In this document: in pieces, positions 35,761 to 59,097 of the stretch
Numbering within the stretch: position 1 is the first letter of the stretch
Layout: every line of letters begins with the position of its first letter
Source: Cafeteria roenbergensis
Lineage: Eukaryota; Sar; Bigyra; Bicosoecida; Cafeteriaceae
Direction of reading: 5' to 3'
NCBI GenBank assembly: GCA_008330645.1
Contig: VLTN01000016.1
Span: 124,001 to 188,000, forward strand
DNA length: 64,000 nucleotides
Made by a program: the position numbers and the translations under genes
Notes under the pieces: model-generated
Told to the model about the DNA's origin: nothing
Seen by the model: only the letters and a program-made list of their open reading frames with translations
Databases searched by the model: none

Positions 35761-37709
35761 TCAGTCGTCGCTTGTGGCGAACTGCTCGCAGAATGCGGAG
35801 GCGGCGGCTGCAACAGAGCTGTTGGGCGAAGACTGAAGCTCGGCAACTGCGTCGATGGCCCCAGTCTCAGCCAGGTCTTCAGGAGTCAATGCGTCAGACT
35901 GTGCGAGGTTGGAAAGCCCTTCGAGGGCCACCTGCTGGATGCGCGGGTCGGACATTTCAAGGCCCCTGCACAGCGCCATGGCTGCGCCCATGCCGACCAT
36001 GGACTGGGCCGCACTGGGGGACCCGCCAGCAGTGGCGTTGCTGACCACCCACATCGCCTCTCGGGTCGAGTCGCCGTCGAAGCTGCCCTCTGCGATTTTT
36101 GAGATGACTGCCTGCATGAACCCGGAGCTGATGACGCTGTCCACCTGCGAGGGGGACCCGGCCGCGATGTTGCTGACCGTCCAGCACGTCTCCTTCACGA
36201 TCGCCCGCTTTGGGCTGTCGAGGAGCGGCACCATTGCGTCGAGCCCGCCAGCGTCAATGACTTCCTGTGTCTGACTCTCGTCCCCGCTCGAAATGTTGCC
36301 CAGTGTGCGGATCACAGGGACGGTGAGCGAGGGCAGGCCAGACTCGAGCAGCCCGACCATGCGGTGCACGACGCCGCACTCGATCACAGCTTCGATTCCG
36401 TCGTTGGGGCCGTCGCTGATGTACGAGAAGCCCCACGATGCGTCGGCGAGCACCTCCGCGTCGTCGGAGAGCAAGCACCTAGCCAGGCATGGCAGCAAAG
36501 GCGCAATGCTGCTCAGGCTCGGCTTCGGCTTGCCACGCACAAGGTTCGAAGCGGCCCACACCCCGTTTCGCGTCATGGCGATGCTGGCAGACTCGGAAGA
36601 CATGCCCCTGGCCATCGCCTCGGCCGCCCCCTGGCTGAGGCATGCGTCGCGCAGACGGGCGCAGTCCCCGGCGATGTTCCCAATGCACCACATGGCCTGC
36701 TCGCGCACCTCGTTGAACTCAGAGCTGCCTGCCGCGGCTACGGCCGCCTCGATGGCTCCAGCCTCCACTGCGGCGTTGGTGAACTCGGAGGAGCCCGACG
36801 CCACGTTGGTGATCGCCCACAGCGCCTCGAACTGCAGGCGCACCGGGCCTGACCCCTGCGCCATGCTGACGAGGAGGGGCAGGCGGCCGCTCTCCACGAC
36901 CTCCTGGAGCGGGGGGGACTCCTCTGCGAGCGCGCCAGGGGGACCCAGGTGGGGCGGGGGGGCAAGTTGGGTCGCGCAACTGGAGGCAATGCAGCCGCAA
37001 GCAGGGCAGCCCTCGGCGCCGCTGCAGGAATGGCAAGCGTCTGTACGCCCTACGCAGCAAAGCCACAGACCTCACCAACCGAAAGGGCCTTGCGCACGTG
37101 GAATACGGCGTTCATGCGCGTTGCAGCGTCGGGGCTGTCGAGCATGCTGAGCGCGTCGGCGAGCCCGGTGTCGCCGCTGAAGTTGACATCGGGGGGCGCG
37201 TCCAGGAGATCGGGCATCACAGCGGCGGTGGCCCCACCGACTGCGGTGGCAACCGGGTGGTCGTTGCTGTCCGCGCGCTCAAGCGCCGGGCCGCCGTCGT
37301 TGCTCAAGTACTTCGCCGCGGCGCCAGTCAAGTCAGGCAGGGCAGACACAACCGCAGCCGCTGACTGGCCATCGAAGAGCGAGTGGACCATGCCTTCCGC
37401 CGCCTGGTCGGCGGCCAAGAACATGGCCTTGGCCCGCTCGCGCGAGCACGTTGCCGAGCACTGCGGGCACGAATCCAGCTCGGACTGCGCGAACAGCTGG
37501 AGGGTGCACGCCGCGCACTGGACGTGACCGCAGGCGAACTGTAGTGCGTTGGTGTCAGTCAGGTCGTTGAAGCACACGGGGCAGCACCCGTCCTCGGGGT
37601 AAAAGGCACCCTTCGAAAGCGACGGTCCACAAATCGCCACGCCCTCTGGGTGCTCTTGCTCCCCTGCCGGCGCCGCGCCAGCCGATCCAGGTGCTGCCGT
37701 GGACGCCAT
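35761..37709 (-). CDS. RING-finger / importin-alpha armadillo fusion protein
   Basis: Exons 37076-37709 and 35761-36923 give 598 aa (gtgagg..gcag, phase 1). The N-terminal 75 aa contain a C3HC4 RING: CPVC, then FACGHVQCAAC, then CPQC, with spacing C-x2-C-x13-C-x-H-x2-C-x2-C-x12-C-x2-C. Residues about 80-175 are a linker. The same exon then enters the importin-alpha fold (ADALSMLDSPDAATRMNAV), and the junction regenerates KALSVEESPPLQEVVESG. Armadillo repeats follow with the NLS-groove W..SN pattern: EALWAITNVASG, MWCIGNIAGD, GVWAASNLVRG, SWGFSYISDG, CWTVSNIAAG, MWVVSNATAG. No importin-beta-binding N-terminal domain is seen; the RING occupies its place. It may be an E3 ligase that recognises NLS-bearing cargo. 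The RING and the first armadillo helix share one exon, so a splice-model error is unlikely. Confidence 0.85.
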
Positions 37710-39366: not shown

Positions 39367-39652
39367 CGGGGCCGCCGCTGTGCTTGTGTGTGCGTGCCCG
39401 CGTCCATGGCGCTGTCGGGCTGCTTGGTGGCCTTCCGGCTTCTCGGCAGCTGGTTTTCCCGCGCGGCAGGGCGGCTGGGAGCGCGGCAGGACCGTCGAGA
39501 CGACGAGAAGCAGATGAAGCGATGCGTCGCGAGTGCTCCCGGGGTCCGAGCACCTGACACAACTCTGAAAACTAAAGCGCAACCACCGCATCTACCGACA
39601 AGAGAGAACCGCCACGAAAATAACGACCAGAGCAACAGCAAACAAAAAAAGT

Positions 39653-39726
39653 CATCTGACGCAGGACTCGAACCTGCAACCTCCCGATCCGTAGTCGGAC
39701 GCGCTATCCAATTGCGCCAGCCAGAC
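39653..39726 (-). tRNA. tRNA-Arg (anticodon ACG), copy 1
   Basis: 74-nt cloverleaf: acceptor GTCTGGC with GTCAGAT (two G:U pairs), D stem GCGC, anticodon loop CTACGGA (ACG, read as ICG), T arm GCAGG-TTCGAGT-CCTGC, discriminator G. The internal A box (TGGCGCAATTGG) and B box (GGTTCGAGTCC) for RNA polymerase III are intact. A T7 terminator on its strand lies at 39644-39650. No intron. Confidence 0.97.
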
Positions 39727-40178
39727 AGATGAGGAAGATGTCGAAAATATGTACATGAGTTGTCTAGTTTATTGGGGTTGCTGCGCTTCGCATTGGCACC
39801 GCGCGAAGCCTGCTTGTGACACTGTTCAAGACCATGCCGTCGCCCGTTTCACCACGCCCTTGCAGCGTGGGGCCGAGGAGAGGCTCTGTTAGCCGAGCAC
39901 TCGCACTCGAACAAAGTAGCAAGCGACTGCTCGATGCGATAGGTTTGGGTTGGTTGCCGCTTGCTCCACGACCCCTATGCACTTGTCAACGGCTTGGCTC
40001 ACATTCGTCGGGCTGGCGCAACTGGCCGGCGCGTCTGACTGCGCATCGAGAGGCTGCATGGCCCGGAGCCGGCAGAGCGCAATCCCACGCATGTCGGCCA
40101 GCCGATTTCCCGCTGTGGGATGTCGCGAGCACAAGCCGAGTCGCAAGCAAGGGAGCAACCTCGTCGGGCGCCTGTGCC
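39727..40178. other. tRNA upstream region and leader of the next gene
   Basis: 452 bp. The first 60 bases next to the tRNA are AT-rich (gtcgaaaatatgtacatg), in contrast to the flanks. The rest is GC-rich. The downstream gene's frame is open from 39816, but residues before 40179 look like leader. Confidence 0.45.
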
Positions 40179-42449
40179 ATGGCTGCAGCCGGTCTTGTGG
40201 CCGACTCTCTGGCGGCGTCGCGCTGGGGTGCTTGGCTGCGAACGCTGTTCACGGCGTTGCTGACTATTCCGGCGATCATCACGCCGCTCACGCCTATTTT
40301 GGCCCCGCGGATCCTGCCCCATGTCTTCCCAACGGCCGATGAAGTCATGCTCCAAAACGAGCTGGAGGCCCCCCTCATTCGCTCTGCCTATGAGCTCCAA
40401 AGCCGCCTCTACGCGATGGCAACCTCAAATTTCCTGATCAAGGCGCTCGAGACGCCACAGCCAGTGCTCATCGACACGGCGATTGCTGGCACCATGTACT
40501 CCTTTGCGCGGTTCATTGCGGCTGCAGAGCGCGCCATGGAGCACCCGGATGCGGACCTGGGAATCTCTTCGTCCGGATTCTTTCCCTACCGGTTGGCGCC
40601 GAGGCGGCAGCGGGTGAACGGGCTCATCCACGCGACGATGAACGCGATGGGCTCGCGCGGAAGCAGCGGGTGCACGACAGACCTGGTCGAGATGCTGACC
40701 GAGAACACAGGCGCGACAATGTCGGTGCTTGCCGACGCTGAGCGTGCTGAGACGCAGCTGTGCACGGCCGGCAGCGAGTGTCGAGCCCCCAGTTTCTCCC
40801 GGGCGTCACATTGCAGTGGCGACGCGGACGGCGCTGGTGACTCGCTCTACGACCTTCTCGACGACGGTCGGATGGCATGGGCCGTGGGAGACGGCGCCGG
40901 GCCGGCAGAGCCAACGCTTGGGAGTGCGATGATGGAGGGCGCCTTCCCCGGCGACGAGGACGAGGATCTCGACGAAGCAGAGGCCGAAGAAGCTGCTAGC
41001 GAGAGCGGGTGGGAGGTTCTCGCTGCCGAACAGCGCGCCGCCGCAGCGGGCGGATCGGGGGGCAAGGGACCTCGGGCCACGCGCGGAGCCGACGGCTCGT
41101 GCCCGGCCGAGGCAGAGGAGCGGGCCGCGTGCAGCGCAGCGCGAGTCATGGCGCGGCACACCCGCTCCGTCGCGTGCGACCGCACACTGATGCTCAGGAG
41201 CGGGCAGCGCCGCGCGATCGCCGAGCTCATGCTGCTGGACCGGGGCGCCCCTCGCCGGGCGGGGCAGCTGGCCGTGGCCCCCATCATGCCGTTTCACGTC
41301 TTCGCGCAACTCGTGTACCCTGTTCTGGCGCCACTGTACGAAAACCCCGGGCTAGTGAGCACCGTGGTTCGGGCCAAGGCCGCGGTGCACGCATCCAGCA
41401 TCAGGCGGGCGAAGCAACAGCAGCTGCAGCGCATGCAGGCAGAGGCCGAGCGAGCAGCGTCCGGCGTGTCCACCGTGCCCCCTAACCCGCTGCTCTGGGC
41501 AGCGGTGACCCCGCTGGAGTCCCCCCCCGCAGTGCACGTGCGGACGCTGGCCAGAGGCACGATCTCGCAGCGGCCTCTGCGCCCGCAAGCGTCGCCATCG
41601 CTCGGCCCTCGCGGATTCGGAAGCGAGGCGCCAGCGAGCACGTCCCCCAAGGCCGGCCCAGTGCAGGGGCCATGGTTCCCGTCGATTTCGAGGGCGTCGT
41701 CGGCAGCGCAGAGGGCAACGTGCGTGCTGCTTGAGCTGCTCGACAACTCCACGGCCCGCGCAGTGCAAGCAGCCCAGCAGCCGCGCACGGCAGCGTCCCT
41801 GCCAGCCGCCTCGGGCCTCCCTGGCCTCGAGGTCGCCGCTCGGAGGGCGTCCCTGATCCACTGGCTAGGCCCGCTGGCAGGGGACTTGGTCCGGCTCCTC
41901 GACCCCACGATGCTGTGCGTCCACCGGGAGCGCATTATCCGCGTGCAAAACGCCGCCCTGGAGCTCATGCTGGTGCTGGACGCCGGACCGCAGCTCTTTG
42001 TGAGCAGCAAGGCGACGTCCCCGCTCGCAGCCGCAGCCGGGCAACACTCCGTGCTTGCCATGGCGTCGCACGTGCTCGTCGAGGTGGGCCGCCTGCCCCT
42101 GGTGGTGATGGACTGGGCTCTGCAGTGGCTTGGGGTGTACGGGCCCGACGCCGCCTTCACCGATGGCGTGTGGCCTTCCCCGATGCCGACGTCCCGGCGG
42201 CCATCGCACGGCCACCGCGTGTCGCCACCTGCCGACGACGAGGACGCCTCGTCCGGAGGGTCCCGCTGGCGGCCTGCCAAGCTGAAGCGGCTGCACGCCA
42301 ACGACTTCAAGGCGTGCACGGACATCTACGACGACCTGCAGCAAAGGCAGGCCGAGCGGGCGGAGGCGGAGCTCAGCCGCAGCAGGCTAGCAGCCGCCGC
42401 TGCGCGCTGGCGCCGAGCCCAGCGCAGCACAGGGGCCACCGCCGCTTGA
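40179..42449 (+). CDS. Unknown protein with N-terminal hydrophobic region
   Basis: Single frame, 756 aa from the ATG at 40179 (MAAAGLVADSLAASRWGAWL). I do not recognise it. The N-terminus has a hydrophobic stretch (LRTLFTALLTIPAIITPLTP) that could be a membrane anchor or buried helix. It is followed by a well-structured helical region (AYELQSRLYAMATSNFLIKA, VLIDTAIAGTMYSFARFIAA) to about residue 160. The middle is acidic (DEDEDLDEAEAEEAASE near 260) and Ser/Ala-rich. Another helical region spans about 360-420 (FAQLVYPVLAPLYENPGLVS) and 540-640 (HRERIIRVQNAALELMLVL). The tail is charged and coiled (DDLQQRQAERAEAELS). The alternation of structured segments with disordered linkers argues for a real gene. 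It converges with the kinase gene, stop codons only 22 bp apart. Confidence 0.55.
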   Translation: MAAAGLVADSLAASRWGAWLRTLFTALLTIPAIITPLTPILAPRILPHVFPTADEVMLQNELEAPLIRSAYELQSRLYAMATSNFLIKALETPQPVLIDTAIAGTMYSFARFIAAAERAMEHPDADLGISSSGFFPYRLAPRRQRVNGLIHATMNAMGSRGSSGCTTDLVEMLTENTGATMSVLADAERAETQLCTAGSECRAPSFSRASHCSGDADGAGDSLYDLLDDGRMAWAVGDGAGPAEPTLGSAMMEGAFPGDEDEDLDEAEAEEAASESGWEVLAAEQRAAAAGGSGGKGPRATRGADGSCPAEAEERAACSAARVMARHTRSVACDRTLMLRSGQRRAIAELMLLDRGAPRRAGQLAVAPIMPFHVFAQLVYPVLAPLYENPGLVSTVVRAKAAVHASSIRRAKQQQLQRMQAEAERAASGVSTVPPNPLLWAAVTPLESPPAVHVRTLARGTISQRPLRPQASPSLGPRGFGSEAPASTSPKAGPVQGPWFPSISRASSAAQRATCVLLELLDNSTARAVQAAQQPRTAASLPAASGLPGLEVAARRASLIHWLGPLAGDLVRLLDPTMLCVHRERIIRVQNAALELMLVLDAGPQLFVSSKATSPLAAAAGQHSVLAMASHVLVEVGRLPLVVMDWALQWLGVYGPDAAFTDGVWPSPMPTSRRPSHGHRVSPPADDEDASSGGSRWRPAKLKRLHANDFKACTDIYDDLQQRQAERAEAELSRSRLAAAAARWRRAQRSTGATAA

Positions 42450-45848: not shown

Positions 45849-47453
45849 ATGGCGGGCGTGGCGAGCCAATGCGGGCTCGACTTTGGGGCAGCGTTTGCGC
45901 TGTTTGAAAAGGACTACGCGGCCAGCATGGCACGGAGGCAACGGGCTTGCCTGCGCCAGCTCGCGTCCCTGAACAAGGACGGGTGAGGAACGGCTGCCGG
46001 GGGGCTGGCCCAGCCGGCAGGCACGCTGCTGCCGGTCAGAGGGGGTCGGTTGCGAGGGCTCTGGCGCGCCCCGGCCGCCCGCCCACCCGCCGGAGCTTCC
46101 CGCGGCCAGTTGACCGCACTCGCACGGTTGCGGCTGCGCGCTTGCCTGGCCCACGCTCCGCCGACGGGGCGCCAGGGGCCCGCGCTGCGCCCCCGACATG
46201 TGGCACGGCGCACTGTTTCGAACCCAGGCCAGCGCTGTGCCCGATGCAACACTCAAGCCGCGCTGGTGAGCCGAGTGCGAGCGCGCAGCGAGCTGCTCCT
46301 TGCCAGGCACTGGTGCTTCCGTGTGTCCGCCCGGCCGCAGGTTCTGGCTCGCCGACCTTCCCTTGGTCGAGCGCCTGTTGCGCCTTGCGATGGCGCGCGT
46401 GGCGAGAGGCGGCGCTTCGATGGCGCCTGCGCTCGTCAACGTGATTCGCTTGCTCAGCGTGCAACCGCGGGCGGCCAAGGCCCACGAGGAGGCCGCTTTC
46501 GCCGATGCCGTGCGCGGCACCCTTCGCGTGCTGGGGTCGGCCCTTCGCGCGGGCGAGCCGCGCGTCGAGCTGGCTGCCGCCGAGACGCTGCTCGACTTCG
46601 CGCACGCCGTGCCCCCGGAGGGCGAGGTTCGTCTCCCCGGCGACTCGCGCCCCACCAGGTGGAACGCCAACCACGACTTGCTGCGTCGCTCCGGCACCCT
46701 GGAGCTCGTTGCGGCGGCGTTTGCGTCCGAGGTGGCGGAGCTGCAGGAGGCCGACGTGGACGGCGACGGCTGCGTGGACATGGCCGAGTACTACCGGTTT
46801 CGCATGCTGAACGACGGCACCACTGCTAACGACGACGACCAAAGCGTGAGCGCGCTCCGCATGCGGGCGCCCGGCACCGGTCGGTCCGCTGCGTCGTCTG
46901 GGGCCTCTAGCGGCACGGAGGAAAGCAGCCAAGCAAAGCAAAGCCGGGAGAGGGCCGAAGCGGCCGCGGCCGAGGACAAGGAGGACGACGAAGCTGAGGA
47001 AGCCGAGTCCTGGACGTCGTCGGAGCAGTTTCTGGACGTGGCAGCGCGCCTCGTGCGGGAGGTGAGCGAGCACCCGTCGGGGGCCGCCGCTCTCACCGCC
47101 GCGGGCGTGCCGCTGGCGTGCCTCGAGGTGCTTCGCCTCGTTGCTTCGCACAAGGAGCCCATCGTGGGGACCTGCCTGGAGACGCTTTGGAACCTGTGCG
47201 AGCACTCCTCCATCGCGCTGACCAAGGGGGTGGCCCTCTCGCTGCCGCAGCTCATCCGGAAGCACCGGGCGGCCAACGCCGCGCACGTGCTCGCCACGGG
47301 CGAGGCCCTGGGCGTGCTGCGCTCGCTGTTTTCCAGGGCCGCCGAGGAAGGCAGCTCTGTGGCAGAAAAGGCGCTGCGCAACGACACCATCGTCGTGGCC
47401 ACCGTGCTGGCAAGGACGCCGTCGCCCCCCAAGGAGTCCGAGAGCAAGGACTC

Positions 47454-47487
<34 letters not shown>

Positions 47488-50400
47488 CTAGCGGCGCGCG
47501 ACCCCACCGCAGCAGCCGAGCAAGAGGCCGCTCGCGCCGGAACAACTCCCGCTGTGGCGGCCCTGCTTCGAAGCGGCATGCTCGACGAAGGGCTGCTCTA
47601 CGCCTGCGCGGCCGAGCTGGATGTGCCGACCCCGGCGCCCCGCAGGCTGTACAGCAGCCACACGGAGGCCGACTTGGAGCTCAAGCTGCTCCTCTGGGAG
47701 CTTGCGAGCTCTGCCGTGCGCGCCGAGGCGGACCACCGCATGAGCCTGCGCGCATTCGCTAGGCTGCGCCGCGTCAAGAACAAGCGCCAGTTTGGCGCGC
47801 CCCGCTTCTGGAGCCGGTCAGAGCTGATGCGCATCCAGGAGGCTCGCGACGAGGCGCAGGCCAGGGACGACGCCGCCGCCGCCAACGCCGCTGCCGCCGC
47901 CAGAAGAGCAGGGCCTGGCGCCGCCGCCGCCGCTGCCGCCGCGGAGCGGCGGGCGCGGGACGCGGAGCAGGAACTGGAGGCACTGCGGCTGGCGGAGGAG
48001 GAAGAGGCGCAGGCAGCCGAGGGCCAAGAGAGGGCCATGCTCGTGGACTGGGCCCCTGCGGGACCGGCTCTGCGCGCCGTTCAGTCGTCTGCCCTGGTGC
48101 CGGCGCTGCTGACGTATCTCAATCCTGTGGACGACGCCGGGTCCGGCGACCCCGTGGTGCGCGCGCTGGCCGGCCTGGACGCCTCGGCGGACGCGGCCTC
48201 CAGCGCGGGGTCGGGATTCCGGGCGGGCACACTCGCCGGCGCTGCTGGAGTCACGGGGCCCGCAGCAGCCACCGGGGCCGGGGCCGGGGCCGGGGCCGGG
48301 GCTGACCCGTCCGCCCCTCCGCCGCTGCCCCCCCACCCGTACGTCTCTCGGTGGTCGCCAGACCAAAAGCGCCGGCTTGAGCTGAGCGCTCTGTCCGTGC
48401 TACGCCTCATCGGCCCTCTGTGCCTGCCGGCGGTGGTCGACGCCGACGGCTGCTTTGTGCTCTCCCTCTACCTGCGCGCCCACAGCGCAGCGCTGCGAGC
48501 GAGGCACGGCGCGGACGTGGCGGCTGCCCGTGCAGCGTCGGAAGCCGCTCGGGCGGCGAGCCTGACGGGCAGGCGGGGAGCCAGTGCCACCGGCGGCATC
48601 GGCGCTTCCACCGCTGGCCGTGGCGCAGAGACCCCAGCCGGGGCGAGCAGCCTGTTTGCGGCTGATGACGCGTCTCGCCAGTACTGCACCCTTCGCTTGC
48701 TGGCTGCGCTGTGCCGTGCGCCGCGAGGAGGCGCCGCTGTGGCGGCAGAGCTTGGCTCCATCGGTGTTGTTGGCGACGTCGTGGAGATCCTCCGTGCTGC
48801 CGAGGCTGCGGCATCGGCGGCCGCGTCGCTAGCCAGCGGCTCGGCTGCTTTCGCGGCTGCTGGCTCCGTCGGCGCGGCGGCAGCAATGGGACTTGCGCTG
48901 TCGCAGCCGCCAGGCGCGCTTGCGTCAGTGGCGGCCCAGGCGGGCATGGGTGCCTCGGCCAAGCCCGGAGGAATCCGCCTTGGCGACGGGGCGGCTGGCC
49001 CCGAGAGCGGGGGCAAGGTGCCCCTGGGGCTGCTGGCCGAGGCTGCCTGCGAGGCCCTGACCGCCCTCTGTGGCGGGTGTGGCGTTCCCAGGCGAGCAGT
49101 GACCACGGCAGAGCTCGACGAGGACGAGCAGATGGGTGCCGCTGAGACGGACGGCGTGAGGGAGGCGATCGACGAAGCCACTGCCCAGGAGGCAGCGAGG
49201 AGGGCCAGCGCCGCGGGCGGGACCCGTGGGGGGGAGGACGACGCCGCGGCAGGCGGCGCGGGCGGAACTCTCGTCCCGACCTCGGCTCGGGCGCTGAGCG
49301 CGAGGAACCAGTCGCTTGTGGACAGGCAGGAGGGCGAGCACGACACACGGGCGCCACGCCAGGGCGGGGCTGCGGGCGCTGGCAGAGCAGTATTCCGACC
49401 CAACCAGAAGGCGTTCAGGGCGTCTGGCGGATTCCGGCTCGTGCTCCGATGGCTGGCGGCGCTGGCAACAGCGCAGAGGGCAGAGCTTCGCGCTCGAGAC
49501 GCCGAGGCGGAGGCGGCAGCGCCGCGTCTCTCCGCCGCCGCCGGCCGTCGCTCGCACCTGAACGCGCGAGGCGAGGCGTCTGCGCTGCTCCCAGCACGCT
49601 CCGCCTTGGCGCGCGGAGGCGACGACGACGTGCTGGCGGGACTCGGGGCCACGGGCCAGGGTGCCCCCGCGCAGGGGGGGCTCTCCCGCGAGCCCACTGC
49701 CACTGCCACGCTCATGATGCGCGCCACGACGGCGTCGGGCTTTGCCGTCAGCGAGAACGGAGGGGGGGGCGCGCGGGGAGGCGCCTCTGTCGCCGCGGGC
49801 TCCATGCAGAAGTCCTCGTCCCCCCTGCAAGGGCCGCCCGACTCGGAGGCCCAGCTGGGCGCCTCGCTGGTCGTGAGCCTGTGGTCATCGGTGTCCGGGT
49901 CGCGCCGCGCGGTGGCGCGGCTTGTGGAGGCCGGCGCCATCGACTCCGTGCTCGACTGGCTCGAGGTGTGCTCCGTGCGAGAGCGGGGCGCCGTCCTGGG
50001 TCTGCTGGCGGACGTGGCCGCGGAACCAGCGTCCAAGGCGCAGTTCAGGGCCTGGCGGTCGGAGACTGACGGCGGAGGGGCTGCGTCGCTGTTGATGCGC
50101 ACCTGGTGCGAGGACGAGGCCAGGAGGGGAGTGAAGCACGGCCCTGGGGGCGAAGTGGCCAACCTTCTCGAACCGCTCGCCGGAGCTGCTGGCGGGGTCG
50201 GGGGGCAGCCCGAGCCAGAGGACGAGGAGGCAGAGGCGGACGACGGCGGTGTCACCGGCGCGTTTGGTCGGCTGCGGGAGGCGCTCCGGGCCGCCAGGAT
50301 GTGGGACTCGGTGGACGGGCAGCAGGCCGGTGCTGACAAGGACGGCGAGGCAGTGGTCGCCACTGGTGTCGTGTCGACGCGTGGGGGGGGGCTGCCGTCT

Positions 50401-51096
50401 CTGGCGGAGCTCGCGGGGCAGGCCGACCTCCGGCCAAAGGTTTGGGCAGTGCTCTCCGCCCTGGGCTGGGAGGCCATTGACGAGGGCATCGCAGGTGACC
50501 TCGCCGACCTGCCCCTTGCCTTCCGCGTTGCGCTGCAGATGGCCAGGGCGCTGCCCGAAGCCCGGCGGGGGGCCGCGTGGGTCGTACTGGACTCCGAGAT
50601 GCAGAGCCCCTCACTGCCAGCCGCCCTGCGGGCCACGCCGGTGCCGGAAGACGCTGAGCTTCTGCGCGACGGCACAGAGGCCAGCCGCGCAACCGGCGTC
50701 GACATCCGCGCCGCCCAGCGCCGCGTGGCGCAGGCTACGCAGGACGCCGTCGACTCGCAGGCTCACGGGTTCATGCAGGCGGTGGTTGACAAACGCCTTG
50801 CCATCGAGGAAAGCGCCCGCCTGGCGCACCGCCGGCGTGCCGCGCCCAAGTCGCTCAGCTTCGAGGAGCGCAGGGCCGCGCGCGACCGCAAGAAGGCCAT
50901 GCTTGCGCGGCAGGCAGGCGGACCCGGCGCCGGGGCTGGAGCCGGCGACGGCCGGGAGGGGTCGCCTCGCGCAGCCGACCCAAGCCCCGTTGCGGAGCCG
51001 GACGCACAGCTGGGAGAGGGCGCAGGAGCCTATCACCCAATCGCGGACTGGCAGGTCGGGGCAGCAGAGGACACAGATTCTGACTTGGAAGACTGA
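45849..51096 (+). CDS. CFAP69: CFAP69, ciliary central-apparatus protein, enlarged and with an EF-hand
   Basis: Exons 45849-45982 and 46341-51096 give 1,629 aa (phase 2, gtgagg..gcag). Armadillo-like helical repeats match CFAP69 in order: LNKDGRFWLADLPLVERLL, ETLWNLCEHSS, LRNDTIVVATVLART, and ADLELKLLLWELASSAVRAE. Human CFAP69 is about 940 aa; extra length comes from Ala/Gly/Ser loops. A canonical EF-hand loop (DVDGDGCVDMAEY, Asp at 1, 3, 5, 9 and Glu at 12) occurs near residue 183. I do not know an EF-hand in animal CFAP69. Later come a charged coiled coil (EQELEALRLAEEEEAQ) and a C-terminal coiled coil with RRRAAPKSLSFEERRAARD. CFAP69 belongs to the C1b projection of the axonemal central pair. 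It is divergent from eL6. Confidence 0.82.
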
Positions 51097-51325: not shown

Positions 51326-54300
51326 CTACAAGTCCCGGAAGGAGCGCCCTGCGGCCGGCATGTCCGGGAGGACAAAGCCGTAGAGGGCGTGCCGGTGGCC
51401 GCAGTCCCCGAGCGGGCCTTCATCGAAGGCGCCGTTTGAGCTCCCAAACTGTGGAGCGCATACGCAACGTCCTAGATTGAGGTCGCAGGCGCCTCGGCGC
51501 GAGCACTCCACGCTCTCCTTGGAGCCTTCCACCACGGTTTGGAAGGAGATGTAGCCTCCCTTGAGGTTGCTGCTGAGAAGCTTGATGGGAGGTTGCCGCC
51601 CATGCTCCGACACGAAAGTCACGTCGACCGCGTGCGGCTCGCCATCCGACGTTACGCCGCAAAGCGATTGGAACGGCCAGCACTCGGCTGACTCCAGCTC
51701 GGAAGACGTTCCCTCCACGCCGTCGGCGCCGTGGAGGGGTAGGTAGTCGCGGCTGTCGGGCAGCCTGTGCGTGCACGTCGAGTTGAAAGGCACGATCGAC
51801 GTGTTCGTCTGGTTGAGATTGCTGTCGTAGAAGGTCGTCACGTTGCGGAACCAGCCCGTGTAGAGGCGCGTGGAGGTGGCCGGGTGGACGGAGACGTCGC
51901 GCATCGCGTTCATGCTCTCGAGGCTTGCCTCGATCCCTTTGGGTCCGGTCACCGATGTGTTGGACAGGATGAAGACGGACGGCGTGCCCTTGAAGTCCAT
52001 GATCACGAACCCGCTCGAGGCGTTGCAGGTGATGCGCTGGCGCGCGAAGCGAGGCGCCACCTGGGCCTCGCGGGTCAGATTGCGGGTGCCCGCGCCTGGG
52101 ACATTGAATGCTCGGCCGTCGCTCGAGACCTCAATGGGGCTGACGGGCAGCGTCGACGGGTACGGCACCAGCCGGTTGCCGTCCGCGTCCACAGCCACCT
52201 CCGTTCTCTCGGGGTCAGCCCCCGCAGGGCAAGTGGAGCGCTTGCAATCCGGGCCAAAGTAGTCTCCCCGGGAATCGTGGTAGGGTCCCGTGTAGGCAGC
52301 CCGCTCACAGGAGCAGCCAAAGTTCTTGTCCTTGTCCCACTCGTCGTACGGCAACACTTCGCCAACGTAAGACTCCTTGGTGATTGCGTCCCGGGAAGCA
52401 TTCGCGGCCTGGCCCATGCTGATGCAGCTCCCGTGGCCGGAACACCCTTCGGCGAAGAGTTCTGTGCCTCCCTGCCCCTTGACGAGGGACTGGCCAGAGC
52501 AAGTCGTGGACCCACAGTCCGAGCCTGTGAAGCCTTCGGCGCAGACGCACACACCAGAAGCGCCGTTGCACACGCCTTGGCCCCCGCAGGTGGCGAGCCT
52601 GTGACTGCTTGTGAGACCCTGCTCGCGGTGCGCCGAGTAGGTGACGCCGGACGCGGAGTCCGTGGCGCTCAGCACGGCGCTGTTCACAAAGCTGGTCGTG
52701 TTGCCCGTGTCCGGCACCGGCCTCGCCTCGTCGAACCAAGCCGCCGCAGTCGGGCATGTCCGGCTCTCGCAGGCGTACCCGGTGAAGCCCGATGTGCAGG
52801 CGCAAACAAACGTTGGGCCACGGCAGAGGCCCCGTCCGAGGCAGCTCGCGGGGCAGTCGTTGATGTGGGCCGTGCTGCGAGAGCAGTCCTTCCGTTGCCC
52901 GAAGCCGGCGTCCTGGTGAACGCCCACCCGGTCGGAATCCCCCCACCTGGAGTAGCAAGCACATTCACCCGTGACTCGGTTGCAGAATCCTCGTCCCGAG
53001 CACTCTTGGAGGACCCTAGAGCCGTCTCGCGACATGCCCCCGTGGGTCCCATTGCGGAAGTCGCCGTGGCGAACCAGGAAGCTCTCGTTTCCGGGCGACA
53101 GGTATGACCGAATGCTCATCGGAGCGGAGTTGCTCAGGGTGATGGGTGGCACGTTCCCCGGGTTTGCGAGAAACGTGATGGCGTGAGTGACGCCGTCCGC
53201 ATCGCACAGCGTCCCGGAGGCGTTGGAGAAGCCCGTGATGTTGACGAGGTCGACCTCCGGGATGGACTCGATCGCCGCCTTGAGGTCCAGCAGGCTGGAA
53301 TTGGGCGACAGGCGAGGGAGGATGCGACCGTACAAGCTCAGGGTGACGCTGCCAGCGCATGGCTGGTCACACACGCAGTCCAGGATCTGCACCTCGTTCA
53401 CTTCCGCAGTTTCGTCCGCGTCTTGCTCGAGAAAGGTGACCGGTCTGGCCGCTGTTCCCACGGCAATGTCCTCATTCGCGGCCCCGTTGAGCTCAGTCGT
53501 GTTCGCGTCCACCACGAGCTCCAGTTTCAAGTCCTCCTTGAGACCAATCCACGTCACCACCCACTCGTACGCGCCCGTCCACTCCCATGGTGCCGCAACA
53601 TCTGTCACGTAAATGCCTCGGGTCACGTTGATTCCCCCAAAAGTCGAGTCCAAGGCGTCGATGGCGATGGCCATGGCCTCTCGAGTCACGTTCCACGGCA
53701 GGGCCGGGGTCACAGCGCCGCCCAGCCGGAGCGCAAAGGTCCCATTGAGGAAATAGCCGTCCTGGATGGTCGTAACGTCGCACGTGGGATTCGAGATGTT
53801 GTTGTAGCCGCTCAAGGACGTGTTGTGAAGGCACTCGAGCTCGGCCGTGTCCCCGTAGTTGCGCGTGAAGGTGATGAGCCACAGCACCCCTGGGCCCCCA
53901 ATGTACCGCACCTCGGTGGACACCTGGTTGATGTTTGGCAGGCTCTCGATGAGCGTGTCCAGCTCGCTCGCACGGGCGCTGTACGGCACCGTGACGTTGA
54001 ACTTTCCGTCGAAGCACTTCGAGAAGCAGCCTCCCGCAGGCCTGGAGATGGTGTTGTCAAACACCACCGACACGGTGCCGTTCACTTCGTTCCCCTCCCG
54101 CTCAGTCCACGTCGTTACTTTGACGTCGTTGCCAGAAGCAATGTTCAAGTCCGTCACTTGCAGCTGCGGCACGTTCCCGCCAATGTCGTCCCCTACGAAG
54201 GTGATTCGCCACTCGAACCCTTCGTACGGAATCCCCCCCGAGTCCGTCCCGGTGACATCCACTCGCGAGACCTGAGCGAGAGAGAGGCGGCGTTGGACTC

Positions 54301-55637
54301 GCAAGGAGAGGCGGCCGCATTCGCATTCACCTCGGGGGACAGGGCCACAGAGCCACCACGCTGCAGCACGTGCCCCCGCCGTGGGGTGCGGCGCCGCGTG
54401 TGTGTGTGCGCCACGGGGGGCGAAACAGCATGCCTGTGCCAGCTCCACCCACGTCTGCCGCTCGCTCACCGTGACTTGGTCGATTACCGACGGGCTGATG
54501 TCCTGCATCTTCTCGCGCATGCTGTCGCCCACGCTCCCTGTGGCAGCGGCGTCCATGGCAATGTCAGTCGTCTTGGCCACAGCCTTGGATGCGCAGATCT
54601 TGCATGCTCCGCCCGCGTCCGTGGTGTCGAAAATGAGGGCGAACGTTCCGATGATCGGGAAGTCCCCGGTGGCTGGCTTCAGGTCCTGCACTCGGACCTG
54701 TGAGCACGGGCGGTCGTTCAAAGGGAGGGGAGGGGAGGGGAACCAAGCGAGTGGGCAACACCGCATTCGTGGGGCCATGGCGCAAGCGCACGTCGCGTGT
54801 TCACGCCATCAGCTGCCGCGCGCGGACCACGGCGGGTGCTCTGAGCCTCGCTCACCACTTGGACCTCGTCGATGTCGTAGTCCGCGGTGAGCAGGATGGA
54901 CTGCACCTCGTCGCGGTGGTCTGCAAAAGTCCGCACGGACTGGATTTCCTTGGTGCCTTGGGTCATGGGATCGTCACCAAAGGGGCAAAGCCTCATAGTG
55001 CAGTCCGGGCCCGTCCATCCCTCATGACATGCGCACCCGAAGTTCATGTCCGCATCCCACGAGCTGTAGCGAGCCTTGTACTTGTACTGCATTCCGTCAT
55101 AGCGTTCGGCCCGCTCGCGAATCGACACGCACTCGCCGTGTCCAGAGCAGTCAGCCACGCAAACGGAACGCTGGCATGCGTCGCCCGTGTACCCGGGCTG
55201 GCACACGCAGACCCCTGTCGACCCGTCGCAGTAGCCAGCGTTCGAGCACTCGGCCAGCTGATGAGCCGAGCCATCCGGCTGAGGGTAGTCGAACCACGCG
55301 GGGCCCTGCGGGCAACTTCCTGCGGCGCACGCCTCTCGAAGCACAGACGAGCAGGGTAAGACAGGGACAGTGGGGAGGCTGTCGAGCGCTCTTTGCGGGC
55401 AAAACAGCGTCGCTTGCCGCGCTGGCCCCAGCCGGAACCACCCGTCACGCCCTCACGTCTGCTGCAGTCCGGAGCTGCGGACCAAGGGTCGCTGCACTCG
55501 CACACGTTTTCACTGCCCAGCGTGCAGCGCCCCCTCGGGGCATGGCAGTGGTACGGGCAAGTTGCCTCGGCCGGGAAGCTCAGCACAGTCGCGAGGGCGA
55601 CTGCCGCCCAGGCTCGAGCTGCAGCAGCCCCTCCCAT
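51326..55637 (-). CDS. Secreted EGF-repeat, beta-sandwich glycoprotein, mastigoneme-like
   Basis: Exons 55457-55637, 54856-55319, 54470-54697 and 51326-54271 give 1,272 aa, all junctions in frame. A signal peptide (AAAARAWAAVALATVLSFPA, cleavage near residue 25) precedes cysteine-rich EGF modules: CHAPRGRC, CSNAGYCDGSTGVCVC, CSGHGECVS, CACHEGWTGPDC, and the hallmark MRLCPFGDDPMT. Residues about 220-700 hold beta-sandwich repeats with the pattern G.F.L.F...T..I and W.ITF (GFEWRITFVGDDIGGNVP; VLWLITFTRNYGDTAELE). More EGF modules (CSGRGFCNR, CGGQGVCNGASGVCVC, CSGHGSCIS) follow, and one at the C-terminus (CSRRGACDLNLGRCVC). Numerous N-x-S/T sites. No membrane anchor. EGF-plus-CP.GDDP architecture is familiar to me from stramenopile flagellar-hair and surface proteins; a role on the flagellum is inference. 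Converges with CFAP69. Confidence 0.75.
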
Positions 55638-57067: not shown

Positions 57068-57210
57068 CGCCGGGGCACAGGTCGTCGTTTTGCGTGCAAT
57101 TCGCTGGCCTCGGCTCCGGAGCAGCATGGTGGGCACAATCCGCTCTGGGCGGGGGAGTCCGTGACCGCAAGCGTCCCGCATCGTTGCAGTAAAAATCACA
57201 GCAAAAAAGT

Positions 57211-57284
57211 CACCTGACGCAGGACTCGAACCTGCAACCTCCCGATCCGTAGTCGGACGCGCTATCCAATTGCGCCAGCCAGAC
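57211..57284 (-). tRNA. tRNA-Arg (anticodon ACG), copy 2
   Basis: Same 74-nt sequence as copy 1 except one base in the 3' acceptor strand (GTCAGGT instead of GTCAGAT), which turns a T:A pair at position 2 into a wobble. A and B boxes are intact. A T6 terminator on its strand lies at 57203-57208. Upstream flank is AT-rich. Confidence 0.95.
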
Positions 57285-58064
57285 AGATGGGTTAAGATGG
57301 ATACTTTGCATATTGATAAAACAGATACATGTGACAAGCGGCTTGGGGAGGTTTGCTGTGGAGCCACCGGTCTGTCCCTCGTTGCGGAAGAGCCAATGCG
57401 GCCTTCGTTCGCGCTCGCATTGCGGCGATACGGACCGGGCGCTTGGTCGTGACTCTCGCGTGACACACCCATGTCACACGACTCGTCATGTTTGCGAGGG
57501 CGAAGTCCGGGGAGGAGGGGCGCGACAATTTCCTGGGCCGCTCTCCCTCTTTCGCAGCCCGACATGGGAGTGGTTCCCGCTGCTGTGTCCGGAACGCTGG
57601 AAAAGCGACGGATCAACCGATTTCGCTGCATGCATCCCGTGTACCTATACTTGGCCGTGCTACACACCTATTCGGGGCAGCAATGGCGCGTTTCGGGTGT
57701 GATTGATGCGCGAGTTCGATGTGTGTTGACAAAGCGTGCCTGAACAATAGCAGGTGTCGCGATATCTTGTCCGTACACTTGGCCCCCAGCAGGGCGCACC
57801 AGCTCTCTGTGTCTGTCAGCTGAGCCGCCGACCGCGGCTAGGAGACGCTCCGAGCACACTATTTTGCGTTCGATGCCATCGACCTGTTCCACATGTAGCA
57901 GCAGGCGATTGCGTCCCAGTGCGGACCTAGAGTATTTTTGTTCGGGCCACCCCAGGGACCACGGAAGGAACCGCCCCGCTCCTCGCTGTCACGATGCAGG
58001 AGTCTGACACTTCCTGCTTCTGGCTGCTCGAAAGCAAACCATCGGCTCAAAGTTCGCACTGCAT
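57285..58064. other. Low-GC island between head-to-head tRNA-Arg genes
   Basis: About 780 bp whose GC is visibly lower than the rest of the window (for example 57295-57330 is mostly A/T). No open frame with recognisable features, no terminal repeats and no target duplication seen. It may be degenerate inserted DNA or simply RNA polymerase III promoter surroundings. No family can be named. Confidence 0.5.
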
Positions 58065-58378: not shown

Positions 58379-58463
58379 CGCTGGCGGCCCGAGTGCCAGG
58401 CTTGAACGTGTTGTCAATTGTGGATGTACGTGTATGCACTTTTCGCCCGGATTCCTCGTATCT

Positions 58464-58537
58464 GTCTGGCTGGCGCAATTGGATAGCGCGTCCGACTACG
58501 GATCGGGAGGTTGCAGGTTCGAGTCCTGCGTCAGATG
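58464..58537 (+). tRNA. tRNA-Arg (anticodon ACG), copy 3
   Basis: Identical in all 74 positions to copy 1. A and B boxes intact. T6 terminator at 58540-58545. Sixteen bases after the terminator (58546-58561, gctgttgctctggtcg) also match copy 1's downstream flank (39624-39639 on the other strand), so the copied unit extends beyond the gene. Confidence 0.97.
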
Positions 58538-59097
58538 ACTTTTTTGCTGTTGCTCTGGTCGATGCTTCGTTCGCTTCTTGTGTTGTGGGATAGCGGAGCT
58601 TGCCGCGCCTCCAGTTCCCAATACCCCATGGCCAACGACGTGTTTTCAAGTGAAAGAGGAGTTGCGAATCGGCTCCCTTGGAGCTTGGCTTGCGGCGGGA
58701 GGACTTCCAAGCCATCCCGATCCACAATTTGACAGCGACTGCAGCCACTCCTACCGTGCCACCGACACGGCCATCCCTGACGAGGTGCGCACGGCCCGGG
58801 GTGGTCGCGCCTCTTGATCTGCATCAGCTCCAAGTGACTCGCCGTTGGCGAGAAGCTGAGCAGCTCGCACCGCTCGAATGACGGCATCGCTCACGCAGCA
58901 GCGTGGTTAGACTGCATGGCAGCACCGACGCACAAGCGACAGATACACGGGCGCGCGCGGGGGGAGGGGGGGGCGCGCCGTTTGAGGGCTGGCGCCGCCG
59001 AGTGGCCGCGGCGTTGTGCGCTGTTCCCGACATTCCACCGCTCTGCTCGCAGCGGACTGGCTTGTCGCAGGCTGCAGGCGCAGGGCACACAGGCAGC
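58538..59097. other. Intergenic region tRNA-Arg / Rab gene
   Basis: 560 bp. GC rises back to the window level by about 58900. Presumed Rab promoter at the right end. No gene seen. Confidence 0.45.

What the first reader, a model, noticed from the sequence alone, without database searches (positions are those of the whole stretch)
35761..37709. RING finger fused to importin-alpha armadillo repeats
One gene encodes an N-terminal C3HC4 RING and a C-terminal importin-alpha-type armadillo domain with the Trp/Asn groove residues. The importin-beta-binding domain is missing and the RING stands in its place. The RING and the first armadillo helix lie in one uninterrupted exon, so this is not an exon-mixing artefact. 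It suggests a ubiquitin ligase that selects NLS-like cargo, or a regulator of nuclear import; I know of no described protein with this layout.
Basis: partly seen in the sequence, partly recalled or inferred. Interest (0 to 1): 0.72.

Follow-up and report, generated by a model that had tools for sequence, protein, structure and literature searches.

The report
RING finger joined to importin-alpha
A single-celled flagellate has a gene that joins a ubiquitin-ligase-type RING finger to the part of the nuclear import receptor that grips nuclear localisation signals, so it may mark or hold back proteins bound for the nucleus instead of carrying them in.

Summary
The minus-strand gene has exon 1 at 37709-37076, a 152-bp GT-AG intron at 37075-36924 and exon 2 at 36923-35761, and encodes 598 residues. 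Exon 1 carries a complete C3HC4 RING (C43-C84) and the start of ARM1; exon 2 carries the rest of an importin-alpha ARM domain (313.7 bits to a PDB importin-alpha; best model pLDDT 89.6, TM 0.89 to rice importin-alpha). All 16 NLS-groove residues examined are unchanged. No importin-beta-binding (IBB) domain was found. The genome is very probably Cafeteria roenbergensis/burkhardae strain BVI. It has two other importin-alpha genes, each with an IBB upstream. One has an intron at the same codon and phase as the window gene, so the splice is well supported. The RING lacks the basic 'linchpin' residue, and expression, activity and conservation in relatives could not be tested. Best reading: an E3-like protein that uses an uninhibited importin-alpha groove as NLS receptor; ligase activity is inferred. 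My literature searches showed no such protein. New variant of the known 'E3 domain plus ARM receptor' layout.

The parts
37076..37709 (-). Exon 1: start codon, RING, acidic linker, start of ARM1 (residues 1-211 plus first base of codon 212)
37458..37583 (-). C3HC4 RING, residues 43-84
37164..37457 (-). Linker, residues 85-182: 5 basic and 13 acidic residues. Residues 1-182 hold no two adjacent basic residues, unlike the IBBs of C5 and C13
37076..37163 (-). First part of ARM1, residues 183-211, encoded in the RING exon
   Evidence: weak when scored alone
36924..37075 (-). Intron, 152 bp, GT-AG, phase 1 in a Glu codon; same codon and phase as the intron of the C5 importin-alpha
35761..36923 (-). 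Exon 2: rest of the importin-alpha ARM domain, stop codon included; degenerate ARM10 and no acidic tail beyond it

Best explanation
It is a duplicated importin-alpha that has a RING where its paralogues have the IBB, and that now works as an NLS-directed RING E3. Shown: one open reading frame from RING to ARM1 and a well supported splice to the rest of the ARM domain; intact NLS-groove residues; no IBB found; an intron shared with an IBB-bearing paralogue. Inferred: with no IBB the groove is free of auto-inhibition and cannot hand cargo to importin-beta; the degenerate ARM10 and the missing acidic tail suggest poor recycling by CAS. The protein should therefore bind classical NLS peptides steadily, and the RING on its roughly 98-residue acidic linker brings an E2~ubiquitin to the bound protein. 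The result would be degradation, or ubiquitin masking of the NLS, of cytosolic, orphan or foreign NLS-bearing proteins.
For: One reading frame and a supported splice. All eight zinc ligands. V45 between the first two ligands and P82 in CPxC, positions that contact the E2 in known RINGs (roles recalled). 16 of 16 groove residues examined identical to rice importin-alpha 1a at 41.7% overall identity; they are also 16 of 16 in C5 and C13, and 12 of 16 in the diverged C14 protein. Best ARM model pLDDT 89.6, and the 50 Foldseek hits listed, of 1,682 at E up to 10, are all importin-alpha/karyopherin-alpha structures or complexes. No IBB found in the window, while both close paralogues have one upstream of their ARM exon. 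Precedents: BRAP2 binds NLSs and retains cargo in the cytoplasm (PMC4377634 passages), and is a RING E3 (PMC5628404, search listing); UBE2O ubiquitinates bipartite NLSs (PMC4363627 passages).
Against: Ser85 stands where RNF4 has the linchpin Arg (alignment; role recalled). Every Pfam RING model scored below its cut-off. No usable structure of exon 1 (pLDDT 40.5). Four of the five ARM models were poorer (74.7 to 46.1). In the codon-usage test the RING frame scored -0.135, below another sense frame (0.056); the test had little power, since the true frame of the last 300 bases of exon 2 scored -0.137. No relative of the fusion outside this genome was found, though no other eukaryote genome was searchable. 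No expression data.
Confidence: 0.5

Rival explanations
1. A negative regulator of nuclear import without important ligase activity: an IBB-less importin-alpha that holds NLS cargo in the cytoplasm, the RING serving for dimerisation or docking.
For: Intact groove and no IBB found; linchpin residue missing in the RING; BRAP2 retains NLS cargo in the cytoplasm (PMC4377634 passages).
Against: All eight zinc ligands and V45 and P82 (E2-contact roles recalled) are kept, more than a docking module would need (inference).
Confidence: 0.22
2. A specialised importin that still carries cargo to the nucleus without importin-beta, or works at the nuclear side, with the RING as an added regulator, for example of its own turnover.
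For: Drosophila has many IBB-less importin-alphas, and the paper states that IBB-less importin-alphas are functional in nuclear transport in yeast and Drosophila (PMC8645118 passages).
Against: ARM10 is degenerate: Pfam Arm_3 not found in the product nor at its locus; the acidic tail of both paralogues is missing, so recycling by CAS looks poor (inference).
Confidence: 0.15
3. Two products from one locus: a transcript starting downstream of the RING gives a plain IBB-less importin-alpha, and the RING form is minor or incidental.
For: In-frame ATG codons lie inside exon 1 downstream of the RING (translation); RNA could not be examined.
Against: No stop lies between RING and ARM1; the frame is open from upstream of the first ATG to the stop at 37050.
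Confidence: 0.09
4. Artefact of assembly or gene model.
For: Only one genome was available, and it is a draft.
Against: No N in the window; contig of 602 kb, very probably from a published PacBio assembly polished with PacBio and Illumina reads; splice position and phase match the C5 paralogue.
Confidence: 0.04

Closest known systems
Importin-alpha (karyopherin-alpha), e.g. rice importin-alpha 1a; C5 and C13 genes of the same genome
   Same: ARM domain with all 16 examined groove residues; one intron position and phase shared with C5
   Different: No IBB found, degenerate ARM10, no acidic tail; RING at the N terminus
IBB-less Drosophila importin-alpha duplicates (alphaKap4, alphaKap6, alphaKap2D-H)
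   Same: Importin-alpha duplicates without IBB; some partially processed copies keep one parental intron (PMC8645118 passages)
   Different: No RING is mentioned in the passages read
Plant U-box-ARM (PUB-ARM) E3 ligases (recalled)
   Same: E2-recruiting domain in front of an ARM substrate-binding domain
   Different: U-box has no zinc ligands; their ARM is not of importin-alpha type and has no NLS groove (recalled)
BRAP2 / RNF52
   Same: Binds NLSs and retains cargo in the cytoplasm (PMC4377634 passages); RING E3 (PMC5628404 search listing)
   Different: The nucleotide-binding plait named in that listing is not in the product; BRAP2 has no ARM domain (recalled)
UBE2O
   Same: Ubiquitination directed at NLS regions (PMC4363627 passages)
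   Different: Called a ubiquitin-conjugating enzyme there; no importin-type ARM domain (recalled)

Membership tests
Importin-alpha | ARM domain with Trp/Asn NLS-binding arrays | tested here: met
   PDB match 313.7 bits; 16 of 16 examined groove residues identical to rice 1a
Importin-alpha | N-terminal IBB | tested here: not met
   No Pfam IBB in the product; no match to a C5+C13 IBB profile in the window, best E 0.21
Importin-alpha | C-terminal ARM10 and acidic tail used for CAS recycling (role recalled) | tested here: inconclusive
   Pfam Arm_3 not found; a degenerate ARM10 aligns, acidic tail absent
RING-type E3 ligase | Eight zinc ligands with C3HC4 spacing | tested here: met
RING-type E3 ligase | Pfam gathering score | tested here: not met
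   Exon 1 alone: zf-C3HC4_2 25.8 against 27, zf-C3HC4 19.7 against 21; the other RING models fall 4.6 bits or more short
RING-type E3 ligase | Linchpin basic residue after the last Cys (common in active E3s, not universal; recalled) | tested here: not met
   Ser85; RNF4 has Arg in the alignment
RING-type E3 ligase | Ubiquitin transfer | not testable with these tools
   needs an assay
PUB-ARM | U-box in place of RING | tested here: not met
   No U-box family among the 13 Pfam families at E up to 0.1; zinc ligands present
BRAP2 | BRAP2-type domains besides the RING (nucleotide-binding plait; ubiquitin-binding zinc finger recalled) | tested here: not met
   none among the Pfam families of the product at E up to 0.1

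The most novel reading that the evidence does not exclude
In this flagellate a classical NLS also acts as a degron: an importin-alpha turned into the substrate receptor of a RING E3 that marks NLS-bearing proteins that linger in the cytosol (orphan ribosomal proteins, unassembled histones, or foreign nuclear proteins of the viruses that infect this host).
Probability: 0.35. Interest if true: 0.78.

Novelty: new variant of a known kind. Interest (0 to 1): 0.56.

Why it matters
Importin-alpha is a highly conserved transport receptor, and its auto-inhibition by the IBB is a textbook mechanism (recalled). A natural fusion with an E2-recruiting domain in place of the IBB would show that the NLS receptor can be turned into a ubiquitin-ligase specificity module, linking nuclear import to protein quality control. 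It is simple to test with purified protein.

Tried and rejected
Rejected: an exon-mixing artefact (shared intron position and phase); an IBB exon hidden upstream (none found); a second RING-importin gene in the genome (the RING query found the window gene and one weak hit at C2:654399, 42% over 45 residues, E 0.008, not examined further).

Led nowhere: relatives of exon 1 in viral contigs (no pattern match); of the ARM part in viral contigs (17 stretches matched a pattern, 0 confirmed); of the ARM part in prokaryote genomes (2 of 21 stretches confirmed; both read as tandem HEAT-type repeats in contigs titled as bacterial, not importin-alpha); one exact 18S pattern (no match). AlphaFold of exon 1 failed (pLDDT 40.5). 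The codon-usage test had little power, and the RING frame did not win in it. GC by codon position is alike in residues 1-110, residues 111-185 and the exon 2 frame, only weak support; the line labelled exon 2 in that output was out of frame, and the row for 35764-37071 is the one used. A K[KR]x[KR] search for an NLS mimic did not discriminate: it is absent from residues 1-182, but also from the C5 and C13 IBBs. No chlorophyll-binding family match pointed to a heterotroph. Literature searches for the layout: listings and abstract starts seen; two searches listed 12 of 59 and 10 of 40 papers; only PMC8645118 from these was opened, by passages. (Srp1/Sts1) was seen as a listing only and not used.

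Full report
What was checked. The locus lies on the minus strand. Joining 37709-37076 to 36923-35761 gives 1,797 nt, 598 codons plus a stop, with a 152-bp intron that begins GTGAGG and ends CGCAG. Without splicing, the exon 1 frame stops at 37050.

The RING. Residues 43-84 read C-x2-C-x13-C-x-H-x2-C-x2-C-x12-C-x2-C. No other stretch in six frames of the window fits the pattern used, and none occurred in 20 base-composition shuffles. Pfam RING models match it at E 9e-6 (zf-C3HC4_2, exon 1 alone), all below their curated cut-offs. In the PDB the best of 57 matches at E up to 1 are RING E3s (RNF4, COP1, TRIM34, TRIM5), with weak E-values from 2e-4. V45 and P82 suit an E2 interface; Ser85 replaces the linchpin Arg that RNF4 shows in that alignment (roles of these residues recalled). 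AlphaFold without an alignment gave no usable model of exon 1.

The ARM domain. The product matches importin-alpha in the PDB from residue 183 on, best 313.7 bits, E 2e-92. For comparison, the best score of the C5 importin-alpha of the same genome is 388.8 bits. Exon 2 alone, as a single sequence, is predicted at pLDDT 89.6 in the best of five models (the others 74.7 to 46.1); the 50 Foldseek hits listed, of 1,682 at E up to 10, are all importin-alpha/karyopherin-alpha structures or complexes, TM up to 0.91 by query length. In an alignment with rice importin-alpha 1a, two further PDB importin-alphas, C5, C13 and C14, the 16 groove residues I named (W/N of ARM2-4 and ARM7-8, W/Y of ARM5, R/N of ARM6, plus one Asp and one Arg; choice of positions recalled) are all identical to rice in the window gene, as they are in C5 and C13; C14 keeps 12 of 16. 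Overall identity of the window ARM is 41.7% to rice, 36.1% to C5 and 35.8% to C13.

Is the join real? The C5 importin-alpha has a 144-bp intron inside ARM1, after the first base of the Glu codon that follows ...LRRLLSI; the window gene's intron follows the first base of the Glu codon after ...VRKALSV. Same codon, same phase. C13 has no intron there. So exon 1 of the window gene ends where an importin-alpha exon of this genome ends, and its last 29 residues align with ARM1. Taken alone those 29 residues are weak: no importin-alpha hit in the PDB at E up to 10, and 5.5 bits with a three-sequence ARM1 profile, reached by 1 of 999 shuffles. GC by codon position is alike through the gene. A codon-usage test did not favour the RING frame, but it also failed on parts of exon 2.

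What is missing. Pfam IBB hits only C5 in the genome. C13 has an IBB-like exon that Pfam missed (it scores with a profile that includes it). For both paralogues the splice from IBB to ARM is inferred from order and strand. The two-sequence profile finds nothing in the 64-kb window (best E 0.21). Residues 1-182 of the product hold 6 basic and 22 acidic residues and no two adjacent basic residues, whereas the C5 and C13 IBB stretches hold 13 basic and 5 acidic each, with KRR clusters; so no NLS mimic is visible that could sit in the groove. Pfam Arm_3 (ARM10) hits C5 and C13 but not this gene; a degenerate ARM10 aligns, and the acidic tail of both paralogues is absent.

Which organism. The genome has 36,303,456 bases in 167 contigs, the window 65-76% GC in 4-kb steps, and there is no chlorophyll-binding match. 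The published assembly of Cafeteria roenbergensis strain BVI has 36,327,047 bp, 170 contigs, 70.1% GC and N50 460,467 bp (PMC6972860 passages); contig C26 here is 460,467 bases long. I take the genome to be that assembly, less three contigs. Later papers use the name C. burkhardae (search listing; that it covers this strain is recalled). It is a heterotrophic bicosoecid stramenopile.

How it most likely works. Shown: the anatomy. From established knowledge (recalled): the IBB both inhibits the groove and recruits importin-beta, and constructs lacking it bind NLS peptides well; several PDB entries are titled as delta-IBB constructs. Inference: the window protein should bind NLS proteins without inhibition and should not deliver them to importin-beta. 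With a RING on a long acidic linker in place of the IBB, the simplest function is ubiquitination of bound NLS proteins. BRAP2 and UBE2O show that NLS-directed retention and ubiquitination both exist in animals. Against this stand the missing linchpin and the lack of any assay, RNA or comparative evidence. The main rival is a sequestering protein without ligase activity; another is an importin-beta-independent carrier, as suggested for IBB-less Drosophila importin-alphas (PMC8645118 passages).

Novelty. Six literature searches showed no RING-importin-alpha fusion in the papers listed; two of them listed only part of their hits, the library holds only open-licence PubMed Central papers, and no eukaryote protein or genome collection could be searched. 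E3 domain plus ARM is a known layout in plants (recalled). The new element is that the receptor is a classical importin-alpha with intact groove. I call it a new variant of a known kind, interest 0.56, held down by a single genome and no functional data.

Noticed in passing
L024/L025 (G000:C14:68563-76992, + strand): A 2,810-residue open frame holds a second, strongly diverged importin-alpha-like ARM core (36% identical to window ARM residues 328-554; 12 of 16 groove residues kept), broken by a long low-complexity insert and followed by a Cys/His-rich cluster. A possible further zinc-finger/importin-alpha combination; gene model not tested.
   Followed up: partly
L013 (G000:C13): Importin-alpha with an IBB-like exon that Pfam PF01749 misses and with a long tail holding several FG pairs; the C5 tail has a few as well.
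   Followed up: partly
window 39651-39727, 57209-57285, 58463-58539: Three predicted tRNA-Arg(ACG) genes within 19 kb.
   Followed up: no
window 46270-51093 (+): Long open frame with a CFAP69-type ARM region (cilia and flagella protein), E 5e-20, fitting a flagellate.
   Followed up: no
window 51329-54808 (-): 1,160-residue open frame whose only Pfam match at E up to 0.001 is one EGF-like repeat (E 3e-5, above cut-off).
   Followed up: no
window 39768-42446 (+): 893-residue open frame on the other strand, upstream of the gene, with no Pfam match at E up to 0.001.
   Followed up: no
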